Origin: Tyzzerella sp.
Lineage (GTDB): Bacteria; Bacillota; Clostridia; Lachnospirales; Lachnospiraceae
DNA: 64,000 nucleotides
Direction: 5' to 3'
Assembly: GCA_017472665.1 (NCBI GenBank)
Contig: JAFUOS010000020.1
Coordinates: forward strand, 1 to 64,000
The notes under the pieces were generated by a model. It had not been told where the DNA came from, did no database searches, and was given only the letters and a program-made list of their open reading frames with translations. Both the position numbers and the translations under genes were made by a program. Each line of letters begins with the position of its first letter. Position 1 is the first letter of the stretch. Below are positions 2,017-22,740 of the stretch, piece by piece.

Positions 2017-2060
2017 AAACAATCAATATTCAACGAATTTTTCGATACAGAGAAAAATCA

Positions 2061-2112
2061 TCTCATAATACCCTGAATTTATTTAAAATAAAGGGTATTA
2101 TGAGATATTTTT
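2061..2112. terminator. Bidirectional rho-independent terminator
   Basis: A 14-bp perfect stem (2061-2074 with 2092-2105, arms TCTCATAATACCCT and AGGGTATTATGAGA), preceded by an A-run and followed by TATTTTT. It lies between two convergent genes and can serve both strands. Its ATACCC/GGGTAT core and the ATATAGAAA that follows also resemble the first hairpin of the intergenic repeat family at 41264, 56659 and 57901. Confidence 0.8.
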
Positions 2113-2125
2113 GAGTATATAGAAA

Positions 2126-2782
2126 TTATCTATCCAGCATCTTCAAGATATCTTCCGGCATAAGCCCATCGAATCCAGTAATCCATTCATCAGCCTCCGG
2201 CAGATTTTCCTTGGTAACAACACCGATAGCCTTCATACCGCCTCGATGCGCCGCTTCAATACCTGAGAATGAATCTTCGAAGACAATACAGTCTGCTGGA
2301 TCCAGTGAAAGTGCCTCCGCGCCTTTCAAAAATACTTCTGGGTCTGGCTTTGCAGCAGAAACGAGCGTACCGTCGATAATCACATCAAGTAAATCCATCA
2401 AATCCAGTTTTTCTAAGATGAAAGCCGCGTTTTTACTTGCAGAACCGAGTGCAGTTGGAATTTTTGCTGCTCTTGCAGCTTCCAAAAAGTTACGAACACC
2501 TGGAAGTACTTCTTCTTTTTTCAATGTTTCTAAAAATGTTTTGTAAAGATTATTTTTCTTCGTGCAATAATATTCTTTTTCTTCATCCGACATGGTGCGT
2601 CCGCCGATTTCTAAGATGATTTCAAAAGATTGAAGGCGGCTAACTCCTTTTAAACGTTCGTTATCCTCGATAGTGAAAGGAATGTTAAGTTCAGCTGCGA
2701 GTTCTTTCCAAGCCAGATAGTGGTATTTTGCAGTGTCTACAATGACACCGTCTAAATCAAAAATAAATCCTGTTTTGTTCAT
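2126..2782 (-). CDS. pgmB: Beta-phosphoglucomutase
   Basis: A 218-residue HAD-superfamily enzyme that interconverts beta-D-glucose 1-phosphate and glucose 6-phosphate in the cytosol. Motif I is FDLDGVIVDT with nucleophile D9 and acid/base D11. A beta-PGM-type cap carries RLKGVSRLQS. Motif II GSAS (113-116), motif III lysine 145 in KPDPEVF, and metal ligands E169/D170 in VFEDSFSG follow. Length is normal for the family. The ATG at 2782 has an ACGGAGG ribosome-binding site. It lies 59 bp downstream of the AraC regulator on the same strand, probably as one transcript. GH65 phosphorylases release beta-glucose 1-phosphate, so its partner is the GH65 enzyme at 18848. Confidence 0.92.
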   Translation of the reverse strand: MNKTGFIFDLDGVIVDTAKYHYLAWKELAAELNIPFTIEDNERLKGVSRLQSFEIILEIGGRTMSDEEKEYYCTKKNNLYKTFLETLKKEEVLPGVRNFLEAARAAKIPTALGSASKNAAFILEKLDLMDLLDVIIDGTLVSAAKPDPEVFLKGAEALSLDPADCIVFEDSFSGIEAAHRGGMKAIGVVTKENLPEADEWITGFDGLMPEDILKMLDR

Positions 2783-2841
2783 GTTTTTCCTCCGTATTTG
2801 ACATAAGTGATTTATTGCAAATAACAGAGGGGGAAAATGAT

Positions 2842-3666
2842 TTATTCAGTTGTTTGTTTGTGTGCGTTGTTCTTTTGGTTCAGCTGTACATACTGCTTTG
2901 GCGAGAATTTGTAGTAAGCTTTAAATGCCCTTGAGAAGCTGGCAATATCAGCATATCCAACCATCGTACTTGCCTGAGCCACTGTATGTCCCTGTAAAAT
3001 AAGGTTGCGGGCTGCCTGCAGGCGGGTATTCGTCCAATAAGACTTAATCGAAATACCAGTAAATTGTTTGAAAATGCGGCTTAAATAGCAGCGGTTTAAG
3101 TGAAGCTGCTCTGCCAGTTGATTGACATTCATGGTTGCATAATGATCGTGGATCATTTGACAAGCCTGCTCTACGTATTCTTCAGCCTTTCTGTAGTTCT
3201 GGCTGACATCTGTATTCATCTGTTTCATTCGGAAAATGAATTCCCATATGTAAGAAAGCAAAAGTGGTTCTAATGGAAAATTTTCTTTCTTGTTACAATT
3301 TGCAATCTTTAAAAACAGATTTTCAAGGTTCTTTGCCGGGAATACGTCTTGATAGTATAACTCCGGCAGTTCCAAATTAGAGCGAAAGCCAATCCAAATA
3401 TAGGTCCAAGGGTCTAAGACATCCGCCTGAAGCTGAAACGTTTCACCTGGACGTAAAATAAATGCTTCTTTCGCACGAACCAGAGTGGTTTCGCCATCTT
3501 TGTAGACGGTGCCGCATCCACTGAGAACATACTGGATTGTAAAGCTGTCTCGGCATGAAGGTTCAAACGTCCAGCCGGGCGCACACTGTTGATAACCGGC
3601 ACGGACAGGAACAATGTCGTTTGCCGGAATGGGGTTTACTGTAAAACGGTCAACTAATTTTTTCAT
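2842..3666 (-). CDS. AraC-family transcriptional regulator
   Basis: A 274-residue regulator. The N-terminal half is a cupin-like sugar-sensing domain (SFTIQYVLSGCGTVYKDGE, then AFILRPGETFQL). The C-terminal 100 residues contain two helix-turn-helix motifs (MNVNQLAEQLHLNRCYLSRIF and TVAQASTMVGYADIASFSRAFK) and the family signature ending YYKFSPKQY. The start at 3666 is chosen because AAGGAG lies 7 nt upstream; a longer frame from 3717 has no such site. It is transcribed away from the operon beginning at 4027. It is the obvious local regulator of that operon, probably an activator responding to an imported sugar. Confidence 0.9.
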   Translation of the reverse strand: MKKLVDRFTVNPIPANDIVPVRAGYQQCAPGWTFEPSCRDSFTIQYVLSGCGTVYKDGETTLVRAKEAFILRPGETFQLQADVLDPWTYIWIGFRSNLELPELYYQDVFPAKNLENLFLKIANCNKKENFPLEPLLLSYIWEFIFRMKQMNTDVSQNYRKAEEYVEQACQMIHDHYATMNVNQLAEQLHLNRCYLSRIFKQFTGISIKSYWTNTRLQAARNLILQGHTVAQASTMVGYADIASFSRAFKAYYKFSPKQYVQLNQKNNAHKQTTE

Positions 3667-3717
3667 TTTGACTCCTTGAAACTGGTTGAAATTAACACGA
3701 AATTTAATGCAAGTCAC

Positions 3718-3747
3718 ATTATATCAAAAAATAGGAACAGTGTGCAA
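3718..3747 (-). promoter_or_regulatory. Promoter of araC-pgmB
   Basis: On the minus strand, TTGCAC (3747-3742) and TATAAT (3723-3718) are separated by 18 bp, about 50 bp upstream of the araC start. The same segment is duplicated near 21173, where the -10 hexamer is no longer recognisable. Confidence 0.7.
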
Positions 3748-3935
3748 TAGATTTTTTAAAATTTTTTTGTAAAATTAGAATTGAAAATGGGGTTAGAATG
3801 ACTGGAAATGAAATGAAAAAACGGAAAAAATTGGCAAAATTGTATGAACATTCGTGAAAATACACAAAAAAGAGTTTACATAAATTTGCCAAAAACTTAA
3901 CCTAAAATTTACCAAAAAGTTACTTATAAGGGATA
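3730..3935 (+). promoter_or_regulatory. Control region of the catabolic operon, with candidate AraC half-sites
   Basis: This AT-rich divergent intergenic region has two direct repeats, TTTGCCAAAAACTTA (3885-3899) and TTTACCAAAAAGTTA (3908-3922), 23 bp apart, in the arrangement AraC-family activators often bind. Two blocks of it recur upstream of 21373: AATAGGAACA-TGTGCAATAGATTTT, and the repeat pair. Conservation of the repeats in both copies supports a binding role. No convincing sigma-A -35/-10 pair was found for the plus strand, which fits an activator-dependent promoter. Confidence 0.55.
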
Positions 3936-4026
3936 AAAATTGTTTAATAGCAACAAAATGACAACTCTGGGACCTTTAGTGAGGATTGGGGAATCTTAGG
4001 AAAAAAGAAGAGGGAGAAAATGAAAA

Positions 4027-4857
4027 ATGAAACTTGAAAATGCTTTACAGAAAGCGCGACAAGAAAAGGGAGTGCTGATAGCCGCTCATCGCGGGGTATC
4101 TGGCGGGAACATCCCTTTTAACACAAGGAAGGCATTTGATGCCGCTTTGTGTCAGGGGGCAGATATCCTGGAAACAGATATTACTGCCAGTGGAGATGGT
4201 GAATTATTTATCTTCCATCCAAAACAAGAGATTAATCATTTAAATCTTGACATTCATCTGGAAGAAATGACGGGCGATGAAATTAGAAAATTACGATATG
4301 TGAATTTTGACAATGCGCCGACAGAATATGAACTTCCAACCTTGGATGATTTTTTGGAGGCTTATAAGAACCGTTGCATTATTAATCTGGATCATGCATG
4401 GGATGATTTTCCACAAGTAATTCAAGCAGTACGCCGCCATGGCATGGAAGAGCAGATTTTAATGAAAGCTCCAGGAAAATTAAAATATGCTAAAATGATG
4501 GAGGAATTGGCACCTGACATTATGTTTATGCCGATTTTCAAAGAAAAAGATGAGTTTTCAGAACAATTAGAGAAAATGAATGTGAACTTTATTGGTTCCG
4601 AGTTAGTGTTCAAGACAGAAGACTCACCACTTGTGCAGGATGCATATTTGGAACTTCAACATAAGAAGGGACGACTTTTGTGGGTGAATTCCCTTCTGTA
4701 TTCGTATGAGGCACAATTAAGTGCCGGTCACTCAGATGATATTGCGGTAGCAGGCGACCCTGATTATGGCTGGGGATGGCTGATTGATAAGGGGTTTGAT
4801 ATTATTCAGACGGACTGGGTAATGCCGCTACGCTGCTATATATCAAACAAAAAATAA
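4027..4857 (+). CDS. Glycerophosphodiester phosphodiesterase-like protein (GDPD family)
   Basis: A 276-residue protein without signal peptide or membrane helix, so cytosolic. The TIM-barrel GDPD pattern is visible: H21-R22-G23 at the first strand, E49 and D51 in ILETDI as metal ligands, and H64 in FIFHP. It departs from classical GDPDs in two places. The PENT segment after HRG reads PFNT, losing the usual glutamate, and the usual HD reads HP. This suggests a subfamily with a different or altered reaction, and glycerophosphodiesters need not be its substrate. AGGGAG lies about 10 nt before the ATG. It is the first gene of the importer operon, 16 bp before the binding protein, which suggests it acts on the imported compound. 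Confidence 0.75.
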   Translation: MKLENALQKARQEKGVLIAAHRGVSGGNIPFNTRKAFDAALCQGADILETDITASGDGELFIFHPKQEINHLNLDIHLEEMTGDEIRKLRYVNFDNAPTEYELPTLDDFLEAYKNRCIINLDHAWDDFPQVIQAVRRHGMEEQILMKAPGKLKYAKMMEELAPDIMFMPIFKEKDEFSEQLEKMNVNFIGSELVFKTEDSPLVQDAYLELQHKKGRLLWVNSLLYSYEAQLSAGHSDDIAVAGDPDYGWGWLIDKGFDIIQTDWVMPLRCYISNKK

Positions 4858-4873
4858 AGGAGGAGAAAAAAAT

Positions 4874-6571
4874 ATGAAAGGTAAAAGAGTATTGGCCCTG
4901 TTATTATCCGTTTGTATGGTAGCAGGAACAGCAGTAGGTTGTGGAAAAGGTTCTGATGACAAGGACAAATCAGGAAAAAGTAATGTATCAGCAGAAGTGC
5001 CTGACTACATGAACATGGACAGCCAGCTTCCAATTGTAAAGGAAGGAACAGACATCACATTAGAGGTAATGATTGTAAATGGTCCATTGTATTCGAACTT
5101 AGACAGCATTAAAGATGTATATTTCACAAGTGCTTACGAAGAAAAGACTGGTGTAAAGATTGAATGGACAGAAGTATCTTCCGATGCATTCGAAGATCAG
5201 TTGGCATTGCGTTTAACAACAGGAGATTTACCAGACGTCATCTTAAAAGGCGGAGTATCAAACTCATCACAGTTAAAATATGGTGATCAAGGATATTTCT
5301 TAAATCTCATGGAAAACAATTTGTTAGAAACTTATGCACCTAACTACTGGGCATTGGCCGAAAAATATCCAGAAATCTTATCTGCATCCATGATGCCGGA
5401 CGGATCTGTATATTCACTCGGTATGGTGAAAAACTCAACAGGTTCTACACTTGCAAGTAAGCTTTTCTTCAATCAGGAATGGCTGAGCAAACTTGGTCTT
5501 AGCGTGCCAACTACAGCAGATGAGTTTTACAATGTGCTGAATCAATCCAAGAACAATGACCCAAATGGAAACGGCAGAGCAGATGAAATTGGTCTTTACG
5601 TCAAACCAGACCACTTACAATACGTAACATTTGGTATGTTTGGAATTGGTAACCGTGGTAGAAACAACAGCTACATTGACTGGGATGAAGAAAACGAATG
5701 CGTACGTTACTTTGCAGCAACAGATGGTTTCCGTGACTGGGTCGAATGGGCAAGCAAATTATACAAAGAAGGTTTGCTTAACAAAGAATACTTTGACTTC
5801 ACAGAAAGTAACTTAGGTAACTACATTAACAACAATGTTTGTGGTACATTCGCTTACACAAACTTGTCTATGATTGGAGGAGAAACACAGCAGAAATTTA
5901 CATATCTGGATGGAACAATGACAGGTCCTAACGGAGATAACGATTATTATGGTGTGAACAGTATCGGTTCTACCGGTTCTTACATCATTACAACATCTTG
6001 TGAATATCCGGAAGTAGCACTTCGCTGGGCAGACTACTTCTTCTGTGATGAAGGTTCTTTATTCTTCTACTATGGAGATGAAGGCGTAACTTACGATGCA
6101 TTAGATGACGGTACATATAAATTTAATGACACAGTTTTAGCAGATTATTATTCAGGAGCAGATTCTTATGATGGATGTGCAACACGTGTCAGCCTTTACG
6201 GTTATGGTAACACACCAACTATGACAAAAGTACCATTTAACAGTGCAGATGATAACAAAGGTGTTGCATTAGAAGCAGCAAATGCTTTGATTGAAGACTG
6301 TGCAATTGCATGGCCAATGTTCACATTTACTTCTCAAGAACAGAGAATTATCGAAGATAACAAGAACGACCTTGATTCATATGTTGCTTCTATGAGAGAT
6401 GCATGGATCATGGGCACACAGCCTTTGGATGATGATTCATGGAATCAATTCTTAGATACCATTGAAAACATGGGTGTTCAAGATGTATTAGAGGTATATG
6501 AAGCTGCTTTGGAAAGAGCTTATGAAAATGGCTTTGAAGAAGGATATCATACTTTGAATGAATTTGAATAA
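4874..6571 (+). CDS. ABC transporter substrate-binding lipoprotein (oligosaccharide type)
   Basis: A 565-residue extracellular solute-binding protein. A lipoprotein signal peptide ends in VAGTAVGC, with the lipidated cysteine at residue 23. The size, about 130 residues longer than simple sugar-binding proteins, and the adjacent LplB/YtcP-type permeases place it in the LipO/YtcQ-like group that handles complex oligosaccharides. A DPNGNGRADEIGL segment is the calcium-loop-like motif seen in many members. A ribosome-binding site (AGGAGGAG) precedes the ATG. The ligand is unknown; the neighbouring GH65 phosphorylase suggests an alpha-glucoside. Confidence 0.9.
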   Translation: MKGKRVLALLLSVCMVAGTAVGCGKGSDDKDKSGKSNVSAEVPDYMNMDSQLPIVKEGTDITLEVMIVNGPLYSNLDSIKDVYFTSAYEEKTGVKIEWTEVSSDAFEDQLALRLTTGDLPDVILKGGVSNSSQLKYGDQGYFLNLMENNLLETYAPNYWALAEKYPEILSASMMPDGSVYSLGMVKNSTGSTLASKLFFNQEWLSKLGLSVPTTADEFYNVLNQSKNNDPNGNGRADEIGLYVKPDHLQYVTFGMFGIGNRGRNNSYIDWDEENECVRYFAATDGFRDWVEWASKLYKEGLLNKEYFDFTESNLGNYINNNVCGTFAYTNLSMIGGETQQKFTYLDGTMTGPNGDNDYYGVNSIGSTGSYIITTSCEYPEVALRWADYFFCDEGSLFFYYGDEGVTYDALDDGTYKFNDTVLADYYSGADSYDGCATRVSLYGYGNTPTMTKVPFNSADDNKGVALEAANALIEDCAIAWPMFTFTSQEQRIIEDNKNDLDSYVASMRDAWIMGTQPLDDDSWNQFLDTIENMGVQDVLEVYEAALERAYENGFEEGYHTLNEFE

Positions 6572-6582
6572 GGAGGAACGCT

Positions 6583-7551
6583 ATGAAAAAGGAGAAAGCT
6601 TCTTTGGCAGTAAGAACAAAGAATTGGCTTCGTAACGAAGCGTATCTTTGGAAACGTTCTCTCGGAAAATACCATCAGCTGTATTTTCTTCTGATACCGG
6701 TAATCTTGAACTTTGTGATTTTCCACTATGTTCCGATGGGCGGTATTCAGATTGCTTTTAAAGACTTTAAGATATCAGAAGGTGTCTTGGGAAGTGAGTG
6801 GATCGGTTGGGATCATTTTGAACGCTTTTTTGGCGCGTACAATTTCTGGACTATCTTGGGCAATACGTTAATTATTAGTTTGCTCAGTTTGGCTTTTTCA
6901 TTCCCACTCAGCATTTGTCTGGCATTGGTATTGAATGAAATTCAGAATAAAAAATTAAACAGTACTCTTCAGACGGTGTTCTTTGTGCCACACTTCATAT
7001 CTACGGTAGTAGTTGTAGGTATGTTACAGGCGTTTCTATCACCAGAGACAGGTATTGTTAACGTCCTGCTTATGAAATTGGGAGTAATTCAGGAAGGAAT
7101 TTACTTTACCAGATTGGAAGAGTATTTCCGTCCAATGTACATCATCTCAGGTTTATGGCAGAACATGGGATGGAATGCAGCAATTTACTTATCTGCTTTG
7201 ACTGCAATCGATCCGGAACTTTATGACGCGGCATCCGTAGATGGTGCTAACAAATGGCAGCAGTTAACACGTATTACATTGCCTTGTATATGGCCAACGA
7301 TTGTCATTCAGTTGATTCTGAAATGTGGACATATCATGAGCGTAGGTTATGAAAAAGTATTGCTTATGCAGACCTCAACAAATGAAAGCGTATCGCAGAT
7401 TATATCTACGTTCGTTTATGAAAAAGGTATTGTATCACAACAATACGACTACGCAACAGCCATAGGTTTGTTTAACTCCGTAATCAATCTGATTGTGCTT
7501 CTGATTGTAAACCGTATTGCGAAGAAGCGCAGCGATGTCAGCCTGTGGTAA
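6583..7551 (+). CDS. ABC transporter permease, LplB type
   Basis: A 322-residue inner-membrane permease with about six transmembrane segments. The family-specific N-terminal segment YFLLIPVILNFVIFHYVP is followed by MGGIQIAFKDFK. The cytoplasmic EAA-like loop is present (DPELYDAASVDGANKWQQLTRI), the docking site for the ATPase. GGAGG precedes the ATG and the gap to the binding-protein gene is 11 bp, so the two are co-transcribed. It forms the channel with the next gene product. No ATPase gene is present in this operon. Confidence 0.9.
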   Translation: MKKEKASLAVRTKNWLRNEAYLWKRSLGKYHQLYFLLIPVILNFVIFHYVPMGGIQIAFKDFKISEGVLGSEWIGWDHFERFFGAYNFWTILGNTLIISLLSLAFSFPLSICLALVLNEIQNKKLNSTLQTVFFVPHFISTVVVVGMLQAFLSPETGIVNVLLMKLGVIQEGIYFTRLEEYFRPMYIISGLWQNMGWNAAIYLSALTAIDPELYDAASVDGANKWQQLTRITLPCIWPTIVIQLILKCGHIMSVGYEKVLLMQTSTNESVSQIISTFVYEKGIVSQQYDYATAIGLFNSVINLIVLLIVNRIAKKRSDVSLW

Positions 7552-7564
7552 GGAGGGGATGTTC

Positions 7565-8449
7565 ATGAAAAGAAGAAGAAAAAAGTTTAACAGCAATACG
7601 GTGTATACCATCATCGTATACACCGTTGCGATTGTGGCAGCTTTGGCATGGCTCTATCCGCTGGTTTATGTAGTCAGTGCTTCATTCAGCAGCCCGGAAG
7701 AATTATTGTCAGGAAATGTAGTTCTTTTTCCAAAAGGATTCACCTTGGAAGCTTACAAATATGTTTTCAAGAACAAAGATATTATGACAGGTTATCGAAA
7801 TACGATTTTCTATTCGGTTGTCGGTACTCTGTACAATATGATTCTGACTGTATTTGCAGCGTATCCATTGTCAAAAAAGGATATGAAGGGTCAGACGTTC
7901 CTTACTATGATGATTACTTTCACTATGTTCTTCGGAGGCGGTATGATTCCGGTTTACTTGAACTTGAATAGTTTGGGATTATTGAATACACCATGGGTAA
8001 TGTTTATTCCGTCAGCAATTAGTGCTACGAACTTCATTATCATGCGAAATTATTTCACACATTCCATTTCGGCAGAACTATTGGAAGCGGCTCATATGGA
8101 AGGCGCAACTCAGCTGCAGACTTTGCGCAAGATTGTATTGCCATTGTCAACACCAATTCTAGGTGTCATCACCATTTACTATATGGCGGGACACTGGAAC
8201 GCATATTTCAGCGCGTTGATTTACTTGTCAGATGATAATTTGATGCCATTGCAGATTTTCTTGCGAAGAATCTTAATCTTGGGTGGTATGGAAGGTATGT
8301 CGACTGGAAGCAGTATGACGGACTCGCTGATTTATGAAAGTTTGAAATATGCAATTATTGTGGTTTCTACATTACCTATGTTAATTGCTTACTTGTTAGT
8401 GCAGAAGTCATTCAAGAAAGGTATTATGATGGGATCCCTGAAGGGATAA
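7565..8449 (+). CDS. ABC transporter permease, YtcP/LplC type
   Basis: A 294-residue CUT1 permease with six predicted membrane helices. The EAA loop is AELLEAAHMEGATQLQTLRKI, and the C-terminus GSLKG is typical of this subfamily. The start at 7565 is preferred because AAGGAGG at 7551-7557 lies 7 nt upstream. In-frame starts at 7517 and 7559 are too far into the preceding gene or too close to the ribosome-binding site. Two pieces of this gene, GGMIPVYLNLNS and the last codons with the following ribosome-binding site, recur as a remnant at 17938-17994. That shows this gene was once duplicated together with the EEP gene that follows. Confidence 0.9.
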   Translation: MKRRRKKFNSNTVYTIIVYTVAIVAALAWLYPLVYVVSASFSSPEELLSGNVVLFPKGFTLEAYKYVFKNKDIMTGYRNTIFYSVVGTLYNMILTVFAAYPLSKKDMKGQTFLTMMITFTMFFGGGMIPVYLNLNSLGLLNTPWVMFIPSAISATNFIIMRNYFTHSISAELLEAAHMEGATQLQTLRKIVLPLSTPILGVITIYYMAGHWNAYFSALIYLSDDNLMPLQIFLRRILILGGMEGMSTGSSMTDSLIYESLKYAIIVVSTLPMLIAYLLVQKSFKKGIMMGSLKG

Positions 8450-8458
8450 GGAGGAGCT

Positions 8459-9406
8459 ATGAAGAAATTTTTAAGTTTGCTGCTTGTGTGTGCGATGTTA
8501 GGTCTGACCGCATGCGGCAGTGGAAATGATGATGCAGAACCGAACACAGATGAACAAGTGGGAAATGGTTCTGAGGACGAAAACGCTTCCAAAGAAATAG
8601 ATTGGAGCAAATATGAAAATCAAGCAAATGTTCTGTGCTACAACATCTTTTATCAGGATGTGGCAGACAGAAGCGATGAAATTCAGGATTTAATTCTGAA
8701 AAAAGATCCAGATGTGCTGTTATTACAGGAAGTCAGTGTAGACTGGATTCCATATTTACAAAGCTTTATGCAGGAAAATGGATATAGTTACTATGGTTAT
8801 GGTCGTTACGGCGGAGAACTCTCTGGTTCTGATTTACAGAGTGGAGACCAGTTCACACCAGTGCTCTGGAAAACAGACAAATATGACCTGAAAGACAGTG
8901 GACATTTCTGGTTGTCTTCTACACCGGAAACTTATTCCGCAGCATGGTTGGACGGAACAGTTAGTAAGTACCCAAGATGCGTGAACTGGGTCATTCTCCA
9001 GGATAAAGAAACTGGTGGAGAATTTATGGCTGTCTGTGTACATACAGACCCAGAAAGCGAACAGGTAAGAACCAATTCCAGCAATTTAATTGTGGAAATG
9101 GTAAATGAAATTCGCGGTGACAGACCGGCAATCCTCGCTGGTGACTGGAACATGCAGCTCACAGATGAGGCTTATCTTGCTGTGGCAGAAAATGGTTATC
9201 CGGATGTACGTATGTTTGCAGAAGATACTACTTATGGTGGTTCGTTCAATGCATGGGGAGAACGTGCAGATGATAACTTCGCATTTGGCGATCATATTTT
9301 CGTATCTGATGGTGTGGCAGTAAAGAAATTTGAAGTAGTGGATGATTATTATGATGGAGTACATATCTCAGATCACAATCCACTTTTCACGGAGTTATAT
9401 TTCTAA
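8459..9406 (+). CDS. Secreted lipoprotein of the endonuclease/exonuclease/phosphatase (EEP) superfamily
   Basis: A 315-residue protein. The signal peptide ends in the lipobox LTAC (C19), followed by an acidic linker to about residue 48, so it is tethered outside the membrane. The EEP fold motifs are complete: N62 in CYN, metal-binding E91 in LLLQEV, D229 and N231 in AGDWNM, and S304-D305-H306 at the C-terminus. EEP enzymes cut phosphodiester or phosphomonoester bonds in substrates from nucleic acids to inositol phosphates and sphingomyelin. The substrate here is not evident. It is 9 bp after the permease and has a GGAGGAG site. The paralogue at 18012 matches it closely from residue 48 onward. 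Confidence 0.88.
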   Translation: MKKFLSLLLVCAMLGLTACGSGNDDAEPNTDEQVGNGSEDENASKEIDWSKYENQANVLCYNIFYQDVADRSDEIQDLILKKDPDVLLLQEVSVDWIPYLQSFMQENGYSYYGYGRYGGELSGSDLQSGDQFTPVLWKTDKYDLKDSGHFWLSSTPETYSAAWLDGTVSKYPRCVNWVILQDKETGGEFMAVCVHTDPESEQVRTNSSNLIVEMVNEIRGDRPAILAGDWNMQLTDEAYLAVAENGYPDVRMFAEDTTYGGSFNAWGERADDNFAFGDHIFVSDGVAVKKFEVVDDYYDGVHISDHNPLFTELYF

Positions 9407-9431
9407 TCAATAAAGGGAAAGGAGGACCTTT

Positions 9432-15548: not shown

Positions 15549-15564
15549 TAAGGAGGGGAAATAA

Positions 15565-17907
15565 ATGAAAAAATCAGCAAAAGTAATTTTAGTTTCAGCA
15601 TTGCTTCTGATCGGAATTATTTCCTTTCAGTTAATAGCAGGAGCACAAGATTATCCTTTTGAAAATTTATTTGAAAGAGGATTCGCAGGTTACACCTCAG
15701 ATGAAAAAGAGGTTAAGACAAGCGATTATGTTTCCTCAAAACATATCGAAGTAGCAGCAGGCGAAACAGTGTGGTTTGGTCCATGTGACACAACACAGTA
15801 TTTCCAAATGGTAGGTTTTGACGCAAATGGAGATGCTACTACCGATAAAATCAGAGGAAAAGAATTGGAAGTAGCAGATACTTTCAATAACGACATGGTA
15901 ATTTACAAATATACAGTACCGGAAGGTGTGGCGAAGCTCTGCTTCTCTGCACCAGGTTCGGTAGCAGATGTATATGCTGTAGCGAAAACAGAAATAAGCT
16001 GCCTTAACTGGGATGCTTATTGGACCTTGAAGGGCGTTTCTACAGAAGAGTATGTAGGACAAAGCAGCTTCTACAAAGTGGCTGAAGGTGACAAAGTATA
16101 CTTCGGTGTAATCACAGAAGAAGATGCGTTGGATGGTATTGCATATGATGAATCAGCAAATAAGATTGGTGTAATTAATTCAGCTGATGTAAGATTGGTA
16201 GAATCATTTGGCGGAGCATATGGAATTTACTGTTATACAGTAAACGATTCTAATGTGAAGTATGTTCAAGTTCCATATGATACAGATTATGAACAATATT
16301 ACACATACATGCAGAAGACTGCTGACGATACTACTTCAGAAGAAGATATTGTTGATGCATTTATTACGGCATATGGTATCCAAAGACCAGTATCTTCTAC
16401 GGTAGAAGCATTGTCAGGTAAGAGTGCATTGTTCGTAGGTGACTCAATCACATATGGAGCAAGAGACCGTGCTAAGATTTACAAATACGGAAGCTGGGCA
16501 GGACGTATTGGATACTTCTGTAACATGGATGTATTAAATAATGGTGTATCTGGTGCATGTATCACTACAGCACGCGTGGAATCACACAGTGCACAACACT
16601 ACATCTACAATAACTTAGTTGCAGCAAAAGATCAGAAATTTGATTATGTAATTATGCATGGATTATTCAATGACGCTAGTATTCCAGTAGAACTTGGAAC
16701 AGTACAAGGAGCAGCTAACTTTGATCCAAGCAAAGCAGATGTAACCAAGTTTGCAAGTGCATTAGAATTATTATTCTACACAGCTAAGACACAACACCCT
16801 GAAGCAACATTAGGATACATTGTAAACTTCGAAACAGAACGTGCAGTAGACCAAGCTCCATACGCAGAAGTTGCAATTCAAATTTGTAAAGATTGGGGTA
16901 TTGAATACCTTGACTTATATCACAATAATACAGTGGATATCGAATTTGACGATGGTTTACATCCAAGTTCAAAAGGATACGATGATATCTACAGAATCGT
17001 AGCAAATTGGATGGCAGGTCTTGGTTCAGAAGACAATGATAGTGCTGAAAGTACAGCTAAAGTGATGAGCTACAATGTATTCTGGAATACTAATAACACT
17101 GAAACAGGAATTGAGGATAGAACTGCAAAAGTTGCTGGAGTAATTTCAAATGCAAATGCAGATATCCTTATGTTACAGGAAGTAAGCTCAGGTGTTAATG
17201 GATGGGCAAATCTGTTGAAAAATTATGCACCTCAAATGGGATATTCATATTATGGATATACGCATAAAGCAGATTTGGATCTTAATGCAGCAGCGCAATC
17301 TCAGACAGGCAATGAAGGAGAATTAACTCCTATCCTTTGGAAGACAGAAAAATACGACCTGGTTGACAGCGGTCATTTCTGGGCATCTTCAACCCCGGAT
17401 GTGCCTGGCTCTGAAAGCTGGACAGCATATGGCAAGTATCCTCGTTGCATCAACTGGGTAGTATTAAAAGATAAGCAAACAAAGGAACAAATTTTGGTAG
17501 TAAGTTATCATGCAATTCCAGACAAAGAAGACGCTCCTGTTACAAATGAGGAAGGACGTAATAAGACTGCTGAGTTAATTGTAGAAAAAGTTTCAGAAAT
17601 CAGTGAAAAATATGATAACCTTGCAATCGTCATGGGTGGTGACTGGAACATGCAGCGTTCGCATACAGCATATGCAACCATAAGTGGTAACGGTTATGTT
17701 GATGCACAGAAGCAGGCAGCAGATACTACAACACAAGGTTCTTACAATGCTTGGAACAGAGAACCAAGTAAATTTGGTTTTGGAGATTACTTATTCATGA
17801 ATAGTGATGTAACAGCAACTAAATACGAAGTAGTAAACGATTACGATTCAGACGCAGCAAAATATCTCTCAGACCATAGCCCAATTGTGGCAGAAATTAA
17901 ATACTAA
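15565..17907 (+). CDS. Secreted SGNH hydrolase - EEP phosphodiesterase fusion
   Basis: A 780-residue protein. A signal peptide (about 1-28, ending AGAQD) is followed by a 250-residue all-beta region that may contain two carbohydrate-binding-like modules. An SGNH/GDSL esterase domain spans about 285-490, with S294 in GDSIT, G in GVSG, N369 in HGLFND, and D463/H466 in DGLHP. The C-terminal 280 residues, from about 499, are an EEP domain with MLQEV, GGDWNM and SDHSP motifs. Two hydrolases in one secreted chain imply a substrate carrying both an ester (for example an acyl group) and a phosphodiester or phosphate. No membrane or wall anchor is visible, so it is probably released. GGAGGGG precedes the start and the operon continues from the beta-helix gene. 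Confidence 0.87.
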   Translation: MKKSAKVILVSALLLIGIISFQLIAGAQDYPFENLFERGFAGYTSDEKEVKTSDYVSSKHIEVAAGETVWFGPCDTTQYFQMVGFDANGDATTDKIRGKELEVADTFNNDMVIYKYTVPEGVAKLCFSAPGSVADVYAVAKTEISCLNWDAYWTLKGVSTEEYVGQSSFYKVAEGDKVYFGVITEEDALDGIAYDESANKIGVINSADVRLVESFGGAYGIYCYTVNDSNVKYVQVPYDTDYEQYYTYMQKTADDTTSEEDIVDAFITAYGIQRPVSSTVEALSGKSALFVGDSITYGARDRAKIYKYGSWAGRIGYFCNMDVLNNGVSGACITTARVESHSAQHYIYNNLVAAKDQKFDYVIMHGLFNDASIPVELGTVQGAANFDPSKADVTKFASALELLFYTAKTQHPEATLGYIVNFETERAVDQAPYAEVAIQICKDWGIEYLDLYHNNTVDIEFDDGLHPSSKGYDDIYRIVANWMAGLGSEDNDSAESTAKVMSYNVFWNTNNTETGIEDRTAKVAGVISNANADILMLQEVSSGVNGWANLLKNYAPQMGYSYYGYTHKADLDLNAAAQSQTGNEGELTPILWKTEKYDLVDSGHFWASSTPDVPGSESWTAYGKYPRCINWVVLKDKQTKEQILVVSYHAIPDKEDAPVTNEEGRNKTAELIVEKVSEISEKYDNLAIVMGGDWNMQRSHTAYATISGNGYVDAQKQAADTTTQGSYNAWNREPSKFGFGDYLFMNSDVTATKYEVVNDYDSDAAKYLSDHSPIVAEIKY

Positions 17908-17915
17908 AATTATTT

Positions 17916-17942
17916 CCGCCATGGCATTCATTGCCATGGCGG
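17916..17942 (+). terminator. Strong stem-loop after the SGNH-EEP gene
   Basis: A perfect 11-bp stem, CCGCCATGGCA (17916-17926) with TGCCATGGCGG (17932-17942), and a 5-nt loop. No T-run follows, so it may act as an mRNA-stabilising or processing hairpin rather than a full terminator. Its 3' arm overlaps the permease remnant. Confidence 0.5.
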
Positions 17943-17994
17943 TGTGATTCCGCTTTATTTGAATTTGAATAGCCCGGGATCTTTAAAAAGATAA
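17938..17994 (+). pseudogene. Remnant of a duplicated YtcP-type permease gene
   Basis: In frame, these 57 bp encode GGVIPLYLNLNSPGSLKR and a stop. The first 36 bp match 7937-7972 of the second permease gene (about 31 of 36 bases), encoding GGMIPVYLNLNS there. The next 19 bp match the last codons of that gene (8431-8449, GSLKG and stop), including the GGAGGAG after it. The intervening roughly 460 bp are deleted. As in the intact copy, an EEP gene follows directly. This is the scar of a duplicated permease-EEP segment. Confidence 0.8.
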
Positions 17995-18011
17995 GGGAGG
18001 AGTAAAAAGAG

Positions 18012-18818
18012 ATGTTAAGCGATTATAAAAATAAAGTCAACCTAATGTGTTACAACATCTTCTATAAAGACGTAGCGGAAAGAAGCGACAAGATTCAGGA
18101 TCTAATTTTGAAAAATGATCCTGATGTACTGCTTTTGCAGGAGGTCAGTGTCGACTGGATTCCATATTTACAAAATTTCATGGAAGAAAATGGGTATAGC
18201 TATTATGGCTATGGCCGCCATGGAGGAGAAATGAGTGCCTCTGAGTTTCACATCAAAGAGCAATTCACACCAATTTTATGGAAAACAGCAAAATATGACC
18301 TGAAAGACAGCGGACATTTTTGGCTGTCTTCGACTCCGGAAGTTTACTCAGCAGACTGGGCAGATGGAACTGTCAGCAAGTTTCCGAGATGTGTCAACTG
18401 GGTAATTCTCCATGATAAGGAAACAGGTGGCGAATTTATGGCATTATGTATCCATACTGATCCGGAAAGTGGGGAAGTAAGAACAAAATCAAGCCATTTG
18501 ACAGTAGAAATGGTAGACAAAATCCGTGGTGAACTGCCGATGGCGATGGGCGGAGACTGGAACATGCTTCTGGAAGATGACGCTTATCATGCGGTAATCG
18601 AGGGCGGTTATCAGGACGTGCGCTTCACGGCAGAAAGAGCGATGCAAGGCGGCTCGTTTAATGCGTGGGGAAAACGTACAGAAGAAAATTACGCATATGG
18701 TGACCACATTTTTGTTTCAGATAATGTGGCAGTAGAAAGCTTGAAAGTAGTAAATGATTATTATGACGGAGTACATATTTCGGACCATTGCCCGCTCCGG
18801 ACAGTGCTGTACTACTAA
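18012..18818 (+). CDS. Cytosolic EEP-superfamily phosphodiesterase/phosphatase
   Basis: A 268-residue paralogue of the lipoprotein at 8459, similar over its full length (MCYNIFYKDVAERSDKIQD against LCYNIFYQDVADRSDEIQD). It lacks the signal peptide and linker and starts directly at the fold. The catalytic motifs remain: E44 in LLLQEV, GGDWNM, and SDH near the C-terminus. GGGAGGAG lies 11 nt before the ATG. The permease scar immediately upstream shows how it arose, by duplication and then deletion of the leader. It is expected to act inside the cell, probably on the imported product of its secreted relatives. It is followed 29 bp later by the GH65 gene. Confidence 0.88.
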   Translation: MLSDYKNKVNLMCYNIFYKDVAERSDKIQDLILKNDPDVLLLQEVSVDWIPYLQNFMEENGYSYYGYGRHGGEMSASEFHIKEQFTPILWKTAKYDLKDSGHFWLSSTPEVYSADWADGTVSKFPRCVNWVILHDKETGGEFMALCIHTDPESGEVRTKSSHLTVEMVDKIRGELPMAMGGDWNMLLEDDAYHAVIEGGYQDVRFTAERAMQGGSFNAWGKRTEENYAYGDHIFVSDNVAVESLKVVNDYYDGVHISDHCPLRTVLYY

Positions 18819-18847
18819 TATATTAGAAGGAAAGGAATTATTGTATT

Positions 18848-21082
18848 ATGAAAAACTGGGTAGTAAGAGAATCTGGTTTTCAAAAGAATTATGTTCGCAA
18901 ATATGAGTCCATTATGTGTCAGGGAAATGGATATATGGGAGTGCGTGCGGCCACGGAGGAAAAATATGAGAGAAGCGTTCGCTATACGCTGGTGGCTGGT
19001 ACTTTCGACCAGATGGAGTCGGAAAATACGACAGAACTTCCAAACGCGGCAGATACAACAGCGGTGTTCCTGAAGGCGGATGGAATTCCTCTGGAGTTGA
19101 CACAGGAAAATGTGAAGGATTATGAACGTAGTCTAAATCTGTATAATGGTTTGCTGCAAAGAAGATTTGTATGGGAGCCACAAAAAGGCCTGCGTTTGGG
19201 ATTTTATTCGGAGCGTTTTGTTTCCTTAAAAGAACGTCATGTGCTGGGACAAAGAGTAACGATTAAAGTGCTGGAAGGTAATGCTGCGTTAGAACTACAA
19301 AGTGGTATCCTTGGTGGAAAACGTTATGGTGATCCACATTTTACTGCGATGCAGGGTTATGCGCAGGATGGAATTATGCAGTATGCAGAGATTACTCATG
19401 AAAGCGAAATTACTTTTGTGACCAGTGCTGTGGCAAAAGCTTGGATAAAAAATGGTGACGGTAAAGAAACTGTTATCGAAATGGCAATTCAGCCGGAAAA
19501 AGAACAGGTGATGTCTTCTTGCCAGGTGACACTGGAAGAAGGTCAAGAACTGTGTTTAGAAAAATTGTGTAGAGTCGCTACTACCAGAGATAAGGATATT
19601 GAGCTGGAAAATGAAAATATCAGTAAATATGGAAGAGATGTCCTCTTGCGATATGAGAAAGAGGAGATGCAGAAACTCTGGGAAAGAGGTTATGAAAAGA
19701 CTTGGGAAGGTTCCAAGGAAGCCTGGAAGAAACTCTGGGAAGAAAAAGATGTAAAGATTTCCGGGGATGCTGATTATGACCAGCTTGCAGTGAGATTTGC
19801 AATCTATCATTTAACAGTGATGGCACCAGTTCATGACAATCGTATGAATATCGGTGCAAAAGGATTGTCTGGCAAGGGATATTTTGGACATACTTTCTGG
19901 GATACGGAAATCTATATGTTGCCGTATTTCGTATGGGAAGATCCGAAAAGTGCACGTTCGCTGCTGGAATACCGTTTCCTTTCATTGGATAGCGCAAGAA
20001 AAAAAGCGCAGGAAAGTGGATATGAAGGAGCCATGTATCCTTGGGAGGCAGCGTGGATTACAGATGGAGATACCTGTCCGAAACCACATTTTACACAGTA
20101 TGAACTTCATGTGACGGCGGATGTGGCTTACGGTGTGTATTATTATTATGAAATTACACATGATGTTGATTTTATGCGTAAATGTGGCTGCGAAATCATT
20201 TTTGAAACAGCGCAGTTCTGGAAATCCAGACTGGAATATCGTCCGGAGAAGGATATTTATGAAATCTGCAATGTGATTGGCCCAGATGAATTTACACATG
20301 AAGCTGATAATAATGCATATACAAATTATTTGACACATTTGAATTTGAAGCTGGCAATTGAGTGGAAAGAACGATTGGAAAAGGAATTTCCAGAAGATTA
20401 TGCACGTCTGAATCAGAAATTAGACTTGGAGAGCAGGGTATCTGATTGGGTAGACCGGAGAGATAAACTGGTGCTTCCAAAGGCAAATGAAGACAACATT
20501 TTGCCACAGGATGACACCTATCTTACTCTGCCGGAAATCGATTTGTCTATTTATAGAAGAGGCGAGAAAAAGCTTCGCGTGGATTATCCATACCCGACTT
20601 ATACGAGACTGAAAGTATCGAAACAGGCAGACGTAATGAATCTCTTCTTATTACTAGAAGAATTGTTTACGGACGAGGTGAAGAGAGCAAGTCTTGCGTA
20701 TTATGAACCATATTGTGTTCATGAATCTTCTTTGAGTTTGTGCGCATATTCGATGCTGGCTGCGGACTGTGGAGAAAAAGCAAAAGCTTATGAACTCTTT
20801 GTGGGAGCCAGAGATATCGATTTGAGTTTAAAGAAGGATTCTGACCATGGAATTCATGCGGCATCGCTTGGCGGTATCTGGCAGTGCTGTGTATTAGGAT
20901 TTGCAGGCGTTCGTATGTGCGGTGGAAAACTGCGCATAATACCAAATCTTCCAGATAATTGGGATCAGGTGACTTTCCGTTTGTGGTGGAGAGGAAGCTG
21001 GTTAGAAGTGACGGTGACGAAAGACGATGTAGATGTGAAGGTGCTTCAGGGACCAAAACATGTAGAAATCATAACAAAATAG
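18848..21082 (+). CDS. GH65 glycoside phosphorylase (kojibiose/maltose-type)
   Basis: A 744-residue cytosolic inverting phosphorylase that cleaves an alpha-glucoside with phosphate to give beta-glucose 1-phosphate. The N-terminal beta-sandwich (1-270) begins with WVVRESGF and contains QGNGYMGVRA. The (alpha/alpha)6 barrel carries the catalytic acid E481 in GPDEF. The phosphate-contacting region has K592 in SKQADVM and the later HESSLSLC segment. Length is normal for the family. Linkage specificity (kojibiose, nigerose, maltose, trehalose and so on) cannot be read from sequence alone; kojibiose phosphorylase is the closest impression. Beta-phosphoglucomutase at 2126 would use its product. A damaged paralogue lies at 21373. 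Confidence 0.9.
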   Translation: MKNWVVRESGFQKNYVRKYESIMCQGNGYMGVRAATEEKYERSVRYTLVAGTFDQMESENTTELPNAADTTAVFLKADGIPLELTQENVKDYERSLNLYNGLLQRRFVWEPQKGLRLGFYSERFVSLKERHVLGQRVTIKVLEGNAALELQSGILGGKRYGDPHFTAMQGYAQDGIMQYAEITHESEITFVTSAVAKAWIKNGDGKETVIEMAIQPEKEQVMSSCQVTLEEGQELCLEKLCRVATTRDKDIELENENISKYGRDVLLRYEKEEMQKLWERGYEKTWEGSKEAWKKLWEEKDVKISGDADYDQLAVRFAIYHLTVMAPVHDNRMNIGAKGLSGKGYFGHTFWDTEIYMLPYFVWEDPKSARSLLEYRFLSLDSARKKAQESGYEGAMYPWEAAWITDGDTCPKPHFTQYELHVTADVAYGVYYYYEITHDVDFMRKCGCEIIFETAQFWKSRLEYRPEKDIYEICNVIGPDEFTHEADNNAYTNYLTHLNLKLAIEWKERLEKEFPEDYARLNQKLDLESRVSDWVDRRDKLVLPKANEDNILPQDDTYLTLPEIDLSIYRRGEKKLRVDYPYPTYTRLKVSKQADVMNLFLLLEELFTDEVKRASLAYYEPYCVHESSLSLCAYSMLAADCGEKAKAYELFVGARDIDLSLKKDSDHGIHAASLGGIWQCCVLGFAGVRMCGGKLRIIPNLPDNWDQVTFRLWWRGSWLEVTVTKDDVDVKVLQGPKHVEIITK

Positions 21083-21095
21083 AGTAATGAGATTT

Positions 21096-21126
21096 GAACG
21101 GGGCTGTGTAGCTCCGTTCTTTTTTG
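21096..21126 (+). terminator. Rho-independent terminator after GH65
   Basis: GAACGGGGCT pairs with AGCTCCGTTC (one G-T wobble) over a GTGT loop, followed by TTTTTT. It ends the operon begun at 4027. Confidence 0.85.
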
Positions 21127-21159
21127 TTGCAAAAATATCTTAAAATCATATAAAGTCAC

Positions 21160-21340
21160 ATTTAGTCAATAAAATAGGAACACTGTGCAATAGATTTTAT
21201 GATTTTTTATTGTAAAATAAGATGTGCAAAAAGGAAAAAATGGCTTAAAACAGGGAAAAACTTATAAACAATCATAAAAATAAGAAAAAATGGTTAACTG
21301 GAATCTTGCAAAAAATCTACACAAAATTTATCAAAAAGTT
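21160..21340 (+). promoter_or_regulatory. Second copy of the araC/operon control region
   Basis: AATAGGAACACTGTGCAATAGATTTT (21173-21198) matches 3730-3755 at 25 of 26 positions. The repeat pair around 21305-21341 (CTTGCAAAAAATCTA, then TTTATCAAAAAGTTA) matches 3885-3922. The middle is diverged. The divergent araC promoter keeps its -35 but not its -10, consistent with loss of selection where no araC gene is present. It sits just upstream of the deleted GH65 gene, which it probably drives under the same regulator. Confidence 0.65.
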
Positions 21341-21372
21341 ACCTAATTGTTAAAGAAAGGAATTATGATGTT

Positions 21373-22740
21373 ATGAAAGGCTGGGTAGTAAAAGAATCTG
21401 GTTTTCAAAAGAATTATGTTCGCAAATATGAATCTATTATGTGTCAAGGCAATGGATATATGGGAGTACGTGCAGCTACGGATGAGAACTACGAGAAAAA
21501 TATCCGTTGTACTTGGGTGGCAGGCACTTTTGATAAAACGGAAGGCAAAAACACGAACGAACTTCCAAATGCAGCAGATACGACAGCAGTCTTTCTGACA
21601 GCTGATGGGATTCCGTTAAATTTAACACAGGAGAATGTGAAGGACTACAAACGTAGTTTATTATTGTATAATGGTTTATTGGAGAGAAGTTTCACATGGA
21701 AACCACGAAAAGGGTTGTGTCTGGCGTTTCGCTCAGAACGTTTTGTTTCACTGCAAGAACGTCATGTACTAGGTCAAAGGGTATTGATTAGAGTGTTGGA
21801 AGGCAGTGCAACACTGGAACTGCAAAGCGGCATTCTCGGAGGCGAGCGTTGTGGTAATTCGCATTTTACTGCGATGCAGGGGTATGTGCAGGATGGAATT
21901 ATGCAATATGCAGAAACAACCTATGAAAGCAAAATTACTTTTGTAACCAGTGCAGTAGTAAAAACATGGATAAAAGACAGTAATGGCAAAGAAAACGCTG
22001 TAGAAATGGCAATTCATGCAGAGAAAGAACGGGTGATGTCTTCCTGTCGGGTGGTGTTGCAACAAGGTCAAGAATTGTGTCTGGAAAAAATATGCAGAAT
22101 TGTGACTACCAGAGATGAAGATGTGGAACTGGCAGATGAAGATAGCAGCAAACCAGGAAGAGATTTCCTCTTATGCCGTGAAAAAGCAGAAATGAAAAAA
22201 CTTTGCGAAAGAGGTTATAGAAAGATCTGGGAAAGATCGCAAAAATGCTGGAAACAGTTGTGGCAGAAACGAGATGTTGAGATCTCGGGAAAAGTTGAGT
22301 ATGACCAGCTTGCGGTAAGATTTGCAATCTATCACTTGACTATAATGACTCCACACGAAAAGAATGTTTGGACACAGGATGCCCCATTTTTTTCTCTTCC
22401 AGAAATAGATTTGAATATTTACAGGAGTGAGGAGAAGCTGAGAGCGTATCAGCTCTTTGTTGAATCCAGAGATACTGATTTGTGCCTGCGAAATAATTCT
22501 GATTATGGAGTTCATACTACCTCTCTTGGAGTTATCTGGCAGAGCTGCGTATTGGGATTTGCAGGAGTTCGCATATGCAATGAAAAACTGTACATCACAC
22601 CAAACCTTCCAGATAACTGGGAACGGGTAACCTTCCGTTTATGGTGGAGAGAAAGTCAGTTGAAAGTGACGGTGACCAAGGATAACGTAGATGTTAAGGT
22701 GCTGAAAGGACCTAAGGATATAGAGGTAATAACGGAATGA
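21373..22740 (+). pseudogene. GH65 paralogue lacking the catalytic core (in-frame deletions)
   Basis: An open frame of 455 residues, closely similar to the 18848 product at both ends. After VRFAIYHLTIMTP it jumps to FFSLPEIDLNIYR, omitting about 230 residues that include the GPDEF catalytic acid. After SEEKLR it jumps to AYQLFVESRD, omitting about 65 more, including the SKQAD and HESS phosphate-site segments. Both deletions keep the frame. The N-terminal beta-sandwich and C-terminal region remain. It cannot be a GH65 phosphorylase. It could be a decaying copy, or a retained beta-sandwich used for binding or oligomerisation. The intact frame and private copy of the operon control region argue against very recent, unconstrained decay. 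Confidence 0.75.

What the first reader, a model, noticed from the sequence alone, without database searches (positions are those of the whole stretch)
2126..22740. Possible pathway for a phosphodiester-linked alpha-glucan or teichoic-acid-like polymer
One locus joins an oligosaccharide importer, GH65 phosphorylase and beta-phosphoglucomutase with three EEP domains, a GDPD-like enzyme, an SGNH esterase domain and a giant beta-helix surface protein. GH65 plus beta-PGM is a known route for alpha-glucosides; the phosphoesterases are not part of it. A substrate with alpha-glucosyl units (for example kojibiosyl), ester groups and phosphodiester links would explain all of them. Kojibiose-substituted poly-glycerolphosphate, as in enterococcal lipoteichoic acid, is one known polymer of that kind. 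Enzymes outside and inside the cell appear matched. The substrate is inference.
Basis: partly seen in the sequence, partly recalled or inferred. Interest (0 to 1): 0.78.

Follow-up and report, generated by a model that had tools for sequence, protein, structure and literature searches.

The report
Operon for eating phosphate-bearing kojibiose sugars
A gut bacterium carries a compact gene set that probably strips phosphate and ester groups from a sugar chain containing kojibiose, imports the pieces and burns the glucose; the sugar pathway is known, but its coupling to five phosphate- and ester-cutting domains was seen in only one other genome here.

Summary
Window 2126-21082 is a divergent gene set: beta-phosphoglucomutase, AraC, GDPD-DUF4996, oligosaccharide importer, lipoprotein EEP, beta-helix protein, secreted SGNH-EEP, cytosolic EEP, GH65. 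Its order is conserved in a second genome (Tyzzerella sp. RGIG4201, roe deer colon), in different surroundings. Two corrections. There are two GH65 genes: GH65a is intact, while GH65b (21373-22740) lacks the catalytic domain, was not found in the second genome and has its own copy of the operon's upstream regulatory DNA. And GH65a can be assigned: its specificity residues (EEAPFP), +1-subsite residues and phosphate serines fit kojibiose phosphorylase. All three EEPs are closest to a 'mannosyl-6-phosphatase' group, not to nucleases. None of 20 other kojibiose-phosphorylase-type loci examined in the family has an EEP, so the pairing is unusual; related EEPs occur in some other glycan loci, but also beside housekeeping genes. 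Best reading: catabolism of an extracellular, ester- and phosphate-bearing alpha-1,2-glucoside. Teichoic acid or its glycolipid is chemically plausible (one Lactiplantibacillus wall teichoic acid is poly(6-kojibiosyl-glycerol phosphate)), but phosphodiester versus phosphomonoester is unresolved and the GDPD seems cytosolic. A new variant of a known kind.

The parts
2126..2782 (-). beta-phosphoglucomutase (turns beta-glucose 1-phosphate into glucose 6-phosphate)
   Evidence: TIGR01990 equivalog above cut-off; 88% identical in the syntenic relative
2842..3717 (-). AraC-family regulator, divergent from the operon
   Evidence: HTH_18 and AraC_binding; 83% identical in the relative
3712..3787 (.). 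regulatory DNA between AraC and GDPD; core is repeated upstream of GH65b
   Evidence: partly conserved in G002; 25-base core found only at 3731 and 21174 in 64 kb, 0 expected; 60-nt repeat 83% identical
4027..4857 (+). GDPD-type phosphodiesterase with DUF4996, no visible signal peptide (cytosolic by inspection)
   Evidence: PF03009 50.6 bits, PF16387 84.3 bits; closest solved structure 3I10; the AHRG, E-x-D and second His positions align (catalytic roles recalled)
4874..6571 (+). lipoprotein oligosaccharide-binding protein (lipobox by inspection)
   Evidence: SBP_bac_1; closest solved AlgQ1/AlgQ2, then 5g5y
6583..7551 (+). ABC permease A
   Evidence: BPD_transp_1
7517..8449 (+). ABC permease B (start probably near 7565)
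   Evidence: BPD_transp_1; the relative's ORF is 294 aa from ATG
8459..9406 (+). EEP1, lipoprotein phosphoesterase (LTAC lipobox by inspection)
   Evidence: PF03372 62.8 bits; EEP motifs conserved
9432..15548 (+). 2038-aa membrane-anchored right-handed beta-helix surface protein; no catalytic family found
   Evidence: PF13229; about 261-264-nt repeats; 59% identical over residues 44-1780 in the relative
15565..17907 (+). secreted SGNH esterase-EEP fusion (signal peptide by inspection)
   Evidence: Lipase_GDSL_2 290-473 and EEP 501-771; GDS, FND, DGLH and EEP motifs shared with the relative (SGNH motif names recalled)
18012..18818 (+). EEP3, no visible signal peptide (cytosolic by inspection)
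   Evidence: PF03372 50.7 bits; closest solved 4C1R, E 2.4e-18
18848..21082 (+). GH65a, kojibiose-phosphorylase-type
   Evidence: three GH65 domains; best solved match 3WIQ kojibiose phosphorylase; EEAPFP motif; SS phosphate pair
21096..21119 (+). terminator-like hairpin after GH65a
   Evidence: 10-bp stem, T run (15 such sites found against 11.9 in shuffles, so weak alone)
21154..21230 (.). second copy of the operon's regulatory DNA, upstream of GH65b
21373..22740 (+). GH65b, duplicate lacking the catalytic domain; open reading frame kept
   Evidence: no PF03632 hit; 73% and 69% identical flanking parts; not found in the relative's assembly
35766..36878 (+). MalK-like ABC ATPase that may energise the importer (inference)
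   Evidence: ABC_tran, OB_MalK, TOBE_2

Best explanation
A substrate-inducible catabolic operon for an extracellular alpha-1,2-glucoside (kojibioside) that carries ester and phosphate groups. Outside the cell, the lipoprotein EEP1 and the secreted SGNH-EEP remove ester and phosphate groups or cut phosphate links; the beta-helix protein holds the substrate or the enzymes at the surface. The binding protein and two permeases, energised by a shared ATPase, import the trimmed oligosaccharide. Inside, GDPD and EEP3 remove remaining phosphate substituents, GH65a phosphorolyses the alpha-1,2-glucosyl bond to beta-glucose 1-phosphate, and beta-phosphoglucomutase makes glucose 6-phosphate. Shown: gene content, order, conservation as a unit, kojibiose-type residues of GH65a, intact active-site motifs of EEPs, SGNH and GDPD. 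Inferred: induction, localisation (read by eye), order of steps, and that the phosphoesterases act on the same substrate as GH65a. A teichoic-acid-like kojibiosyl-glycerol phosphate is one fitting substrate, not a demonstrated one.
For: Whole order conserved in a second genome; the similarity ends at the unit's borders and five flanking proteins of the window found no match in the relative's 35 kb. In the genus, full-length GH65a (79% identity), GDPD (86%) and SGNH-EEP (67%) orthologues occur together in G002; the window's genome and G002 are 2 of 10, the other 8 have only distant matches, if any. GH65a: EEAPFP against the EEAPxx of kojibiose phosphorylases, W399/E400/T416 at the +1 subsite and two consecutive serines for phosphate. 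EEP profile: 3g6s 242, 3mpr 207.5, 4c1r 206.8, 3l1w 184.3 bits; the other 32 listed chains, nucleases included, 69.7 or less. Related EEPs in other glycan-uptake loci: beside a SOGP-type glycoside phosphorylase (L017), with a GDPD homologue and GH3 (L055), GH4 and PfkB with (L095) or without (L093) GH38, GH31 and a metallophosphoesterase (L101). Close GDPD homologues lie within 10 kb of related permeases in 9 of 15 loci. No extracellular glycoside hydrolase family was hit in the unit, so only esterases and phosphoesterases are on hand to release importable pieces. Kojibiosyl-phosphodiester polymers and glycolipids are known (PMC9396385, PMC3428275; passages).
Against: No activity data. EEPs are absent from 20 of 20 other kojibiose-phosphorylase-type loci, so the link rests on one lineage (2 genomes). 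The EEP domain itself is common: it rings in all 16 and all 17 genomes and in 10 of 14 control genomes. Some related EEPs sit beside housekeeping genes (L089: POR, MscS, CheC; L096: tRNA synthetase, UvrD). EEP adjacency (1.1 kb or less) to this permease type is 4 of 20 against 0.62 expected (P 0.003), but 2 of 16 (P 0.09) if only EEPs are used, and two of the four share one cluster type. No second enzyme for the aglycone (for example glucosylglycerol) is in the unit.
Confidence: 0.5

Rival explanations
1. The EEPs are sugar phosphomonoesterases. The substrate is an alpha-1,2-glucoside with phosphate monoesters, and GDPD serves some other glycerophosphodiester; no phosphodiester polymer is involved.
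For: Closest solved EEP with a functional name is 'mannosyl-6-phosphatase' 4C1R; related EEPs sit in loci with GH4 and, in one, GH38 (an alpha-mannosidase family).
Against: The GDPD family is a phosphodiesterase family and the gene is kept in the unit in both genomes. The three window EEPs differ from most compared relatives at THLDH (HTDPE or HAIPD here) and IDYIF (GDHIF or GDYLF), so specificity may have changed.
Confidence: 0.25
2. Turnover or remodelling of the bacterium's own envelope polymer (own teichoic acid or glycolipid), with GH65a recycling the sugar.
For: Surface-anchored beta-helix, lipoprotein EEP, and known kojibiosyl membrane glycolipids in enterococci.
Against: The unit is in only 2 of 10 genus genomes (some incomplete) and sits in different surroundings; it has a divergent AraC regulator and an importer, as in catabolic loci.
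Confidence: 0.1
3. The EEPs are nucleases or nucleotide phosphatases for phosphate scavenging and only share an operon with kojibiose use.
For: EEP is a broad superfamily that includes nucleases; weak NCBIfam hits, far below cut-offs, to MnuA nuclease (31.1 of 185) and exodeoxyribonuclease III (19.6 of 182.6).
Against: Profile scores for nuclease and other EEP structures are 69.7 bits or less against 184-242 for the Bacteroides-type group.
Confidence: 0.08
4. GH65a acts on another alpha-1,2-glucoside such as glucosyl-galactose or glucosyl-glycerol.
For: The last two specificity positions (F, P) and DEF at the general acid differ from all 20 compared kojibiose-type homologues (DEY or DEW).
Against: All four core motif letters and the +1-subsite residues match kojibiose phosphorylase; the glucosylglycerol phosphorylase structure scores lower (313 against 361 bits).
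Confidence: 0.15

Closest known systems
GH65 kojibiose-phosphorylase-type loci with beta-phosphoglucomutase and ABC importer in the same family
   Same: GH65a motif and phosphate residues (20 of 20); betaPGM homologue by BLAST in 10 of the 20 loci; permease homologues in many
   Different: 0 of 20 compared loci hold an EEP; the importer here is nearest to AlgQ-type binding proteins, and GDPD, SGNH and beta-helix genes are added
Bacteroides-type EEP 'mannosyl-6-phosphatase' (PDB 4C1R); recalled as BT3783 of a yeast-mannan locus, paper not held
   Same: closest solved relatives of the window EEPs; active-site motifs shared
   Different: different glycan, three copies, one fused to SGNH; changed residues near the active-site motifs
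Use of osmoregulated periplasmic glucans by beta-1,2-oligoglucan phosphorylase
   Same: G033 locus L017 has an EEP next to a SOGP-family gene, importer, LacI, GH3; such glucans carry phosphoglycerol (PMC10514313, passages), so an EEP beside a phosphorylase may have the same role
   Different: beta-1,2- rather than alpha-1,2-glucan (SOGP specificity recalled); no GDPD or SGNH hit in the L017 stretch
Teichoic acid degradation by GlpQ
   Same: GDPD fold; glycerol-phosphate polymers (PMC7086022, abstract)
   Different: GDPD here shows no signal peptide, is DUF4996-type, and EEPs are the extracellular phosphoesterases

Membership tests
GH65 kojibiose phosphorylase | N, catalytic and C domains | tested here: met
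   GH65a; GH65b fails (no PF03632)
GH65 kojibiose phosphorylase | EEAPxx at six correlated positions (De Beul 2021) | tested here: met
   EEAPFP
GH65 kojibiose phosphorylase | two consecutive phosphate-binding serines and general-acid Glu | tested here: met
   HESSLS and PDEF
GH65 kojibiose phosphorylase | phosphorolysis of kojibiose | not testable with these tools
   needs enzyme assay
GH65 kojibiose phosphorylase | catalytic domain in GH65b | tested here: not met
   GH65b is not filed as an enzyme
beta-phosphoglucomutase | TIGR01990 above curated cut-off | tested here: met
   234 against 189.4 bits
Bacteroides-type sugar-phosphatase EEP group (4C1R) | closest sequence relatives among solved EEPs, active-site motifs kept | tested here: met
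Bacteroides-type sugar-phosphatase EEP group (4C1R) | sugar phosphatase activity | not testable with these tools
   needs assay; the activity is known here only from the PDB molecule name
Glycerophosphodiester phosphodiesterase | PF03009 above cut-off with conserved motif residues | tested here: met
   NCBIfam equivalog cut-offs not reached
Secreted teichoicase (GlpQ-like) system | exported GDPD | tested here: not met
   no signal peptide by inspection; no prediction program was run
Teichoic-acid foraging system | growth on or release from teichoic acid | not testable with these tools
   needs experiment

The most novel reading that the evidence does not exclude
A mobile teichoic-acid- or glycolipid-foraging operon in herbivore-gut Lachnospiraceae in which extracellular depolymerisation is done by phosphodiesterases and an esterase instead of glycoside hydrolases, releasing kojibiosyl-glycerol-type units for import and phosphorolysis; the catalytically dead GH65b, under its own copy of the operon's regulatory DNA, would be a sugar-binding or regulatory by-product.
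Probability: 0.18. Interest if true: 0.75.

Novelty: new variant of a known kind. Interest (0 to 1): 0.45.

Why it matters
Gut bacteria meet each other's teichoic acids and phosphoglycolipids (general knowledge). Two searches of the held open-access library for a system joining kojibiose use to teichoic acids gave no paper and one unrelated-looking genome report, seen as a listing only. The operon is a concrete, testable gene set and suggests a role in glycan uptake for two poorly characterised families: Bacteroides-type EEPs and DUF4996-GDPDs.

Tried and rejected
A nucleic-acid role for the EEPs was considered and ranked low. A wide-spread EEP-GH65 pairing was expected and not found: 0 of 20 loci, which are 20 of the 28 non-own matches, by my own profile and by Pfam PF03372 over the 17 genomes concerned, where no EEP lies near the GH65 genes. 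A wide EEP-GDPD pairing was not found either: 1 of 15 loci, L055 (by my profile over all 15; by PF03372 over their 11 genomes). EEP adjacency to permeases proved only weakly enriched: it uses 7 of the 16 genomes plus 3 genomes, and the permease list was cut, so weak permeases near an EEP may be missed. A selection test on GH65b was inconclusive: changes unique to GH65b 47 synonymous / 30 non-synonymous, to GH65a 47/12, so it is relaxed but far from free drift, and the age of the deletion is unknown. The paper recalled for the Bacteroides mannan phosphatase is not held and a search for its gene name found nothing relevant. Other paper searches that gave nothing used here; passages opened in PMC9522356 were not relevant.

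The genome-contig scan with EEP3 returned one locus, the roe-deer MAG (records of the window's own genome may be left out there). The EEP of G147:C4 (L100) was not recovered by my seven-sequence profile, so that profile has limited reach.
Full report
What is there. The window is part of a 1.66-Mb, 65%-complete assembly. From 2126 to 21082 lie betaPGM and AraC on the minus strand, and on the plus strand GDPD-DUF4996, a solute-binding lipoprotein, two permeases, a lipoprotein EEP, a 2038-aa beta-helix protein, a secreted SGNH-EEP fusion, a third EEP and GH65a. Gaps between the plus-strand genes are at most 104 bases (coordinates), a terminator-like hairpin follows GH65a, and 309 bases separate the AraC ORF from GDPD. 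By eye, the binding protein and EEP1 have lipoboxes, SGNH-EEP a signal peptide, the beta-helix protein a membrane anchor, and GDPD, EEP3 and GH65a none; no prediction program was run.

It is one unit. Genome G002 (taken to be the record Tyzzerella sp. RGIG4201 from roe deer colon, L018, because contig length and gene positions agree) carries the same genes in the same order; eight proteins are 83-91% identical, GH65a 78%, SGNH-EEP 64% and beta-helix 59%. DNA similarity runs from 2138 to 21081 with two breaks; outside it there is a 50-base match at 816-863 and the match of GH65b to the relative's GH65a. None of five flanking window proteins tested (an HTH/DUF2442 protein, MFS, carB, a second SGNH, a FAD enzyme) matched the relative's 35 kb, and its own flanking genes look different. 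Of 10 genomes of the genus, full-length GH65a and SGNH-EEP orthologues occur in these two only; elsewhere there is a 37% identical GH65 in G001, SGNH-only matches (54%) in G009 and a 35% identical GDPD in G006. Several of these assemblies are incomplete. The unit thus seems to move or be kept as a whole.

GH65a is a kojibiose-phosphorylase-type enzyme. Its best solved match is kojibiose phosphorylase 3WIQ (361 bits; glucosylglycerol phosphorylase 313, maltose phosphorylase 279). De Beul et al. (PMC8537180; abstract, Results and figure/table sections read) name six correlated positions whose motif EEAPxx is characteristic of kojibiose phosphorylases; GH65a reads EEAPFP. Residues described as surrounding the +1 glucose (Trp391, Glu392, Thr407 in FjGH65A, conserved in kojibiose phosphorylase; PMC8626586, passages read) correspond to W399, E400 and, by my alignment, T416. 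The two consecutive phosphate-binding serines of phosphorylases are present, as is the general-acid glutamate. All 20 homologues compared (33-45% identity) also carry EEAP, but with other last two letters and DEY or DEW instead of DEF, so GH65a is a distinct branch and its acceptor may differ.

The EEPs. A single-sequence search up to E 1 gives 4C1R 'mannosyl-6-phosphatase' first (E 2.4e-18), then 3MPR (near-identical in its alignment), 3G6S and 3L1W, and only a Rep chain at E 0.1 besides. A profile of 15 EEPs scores this group 184-242 bits; the other 32 chains listed at E 1e-8 or better (CCR4, nocturnin, PDE12, TDP2, exodeoxyribonuclease, beta-hemolysin and others) score 69.7 or less. The profile was built from sequences chosen for likeness to the window EEPs, which favours this result. 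Seventeen columns are invariant, among them the positions I recall as catalytic except one Asn that is nearly so. The window EEPs depart from most compared relatives at two motifs next to the active site, so mono- or diesterase activity cannot be read off.

How unusual is the pairing? Among 397 family genomes, 26 have a GH65 at E 1e-100 or better; I fetched 20 of the 28 non-own matches. None of the 20 loci (12 to 20 kb, some cut by contig ends) has an EEP by a seven-sequence profile, and in the 17 genomes concerned Pfam's EEP model finds no EEP near these GH65 genes, although every genome has one elsewhere. GDPD homologues above 100 bits: 15 non-own in 299 family genomes (DUF4996 was not scanned in them). 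Nine of the 15 loci have related permeases; of seven loci in which some neighbours were scanned (L049-L055), three have a metallo-beta-lactamase-fold gene; 1 of 15 (L055) has an EEP. Among 24 EEP loci laid out, Pfam was run only on selected neighbours: L017 has the EEP next to a SOGP-type glycoside phosphorylase; L055 GH3; L093 and L095 GH4 with PfkB and, in L095, GH38; L101 GH31 and a metallophosphoesterase; L084 GH3 and a metallophosphoesterase; L103 GH77 and a PTS gene. Against this, L089 (and, by similar gene sizes, its genus mates) and L096 show housekeeping neighbours, and the rest were annotated little or not at all. Counted against permease density, 4 of 20 EEPs lie within 1.1 kb of a related permease against 0.62 expected (P 0.003), 5 of 20 within 5 kb against 1.78 (P 0.03), but 2 of 16 and 3 of 16 (P 0.09, 0.17) without the later-found genomes; G498 and G512 have one type of cluster, so they are not independent.

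What the substrate may be. No glycoside hydrolase was recognised among the unit's exported proteins; the beta-helix protein hit only a generic beta-helix model. If the unit works by itself, release of importable pieces falls to the esterase and phosphoesterases, which is what a phosphate-linked polymer would need. Such polymers exist: a Lactiplantibacillus plantarum wall teichoic acid is poly(6-kojibiosyl-alpha1-glycerol 3-phosphate) (PMC9396385, passages read), and enterococci hold glycerophosphoryl-phosphatidyl-kojibiosyl-diacylglycerol (PMC3428275, passages read). The L017 case is a parallel: osmoregulated periplasmic beta-1,2-glucans carry phosphoglycerol, succinate and phosphoethanolamine (PMC10514313, passages read), and there too an EEP sits beside an oligoglucan-phosphorylase-type gene. 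These are chemical fits, not proof; phosphate monoesters would fit the EEPs equally well, and other bacteria may release the pieces.

The second GH65. GH65b has the N and C domains but no catalytic domain, lost by at least two in-frame gaps relative to GH65a; the ORF has no stop. Its upstream DNA repeats the AraC-GDPD intergenic sequence: a 25-base core occurs twice in 64 kb, none expected, and 60 bases are 83% identical. The core is also conserved in part before GDPD in G002. It is either a decaying duplicate or a non-catalytic sugar-binding product under the same control.

Verdict. I file it as a new variant of the GH65-betaPGM catabolic operon, with a phosphoesterase and esterase module not seen in the compared loci.

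Noticed in passing
window 21154-21230 and 3712-3787: Regulatory DNA upstream of the operon is copied upstream of the catalytically dead GH65b; only two copies of the core in the window.
   Followed up: yes
window 45110-56449: 3779-aa protein with 20 Cna_B stretches, probably a giant surface protein.
   Followed up: no
window 34-375: Short ORF with a Cas12f1-like TNB domain (PF07282, as in TnpB) near the 5' border of the unit, possibly a mobile-element remnant.
   Followed up: no
L017 (G033:C71) 859-12368: EEP beside a SOGP-type glycoside phosphorylase, importer, LacI and GH3: candidate locus for phosphoglycerol-bearing beta-1,2-glucans.
   Followed up: partly
L050, L051, L053: GDPD homologue near a metallo-beta-lactamase-fold gene and sugar importer genes; L049 has an ABC ATPase, fused permease and SBP_bac_6-type binding protein instead.
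   Followed up: no
L104 and L105 (G009): SGNH domain 54% identical to that of SGNH-EEP, stand-alone, followed by DUF5054 and DUF6259 genes and, in L104, preceded by a GH123-like gene; the same stretch occurs on two contigs of one assembly.
   Followed up: no
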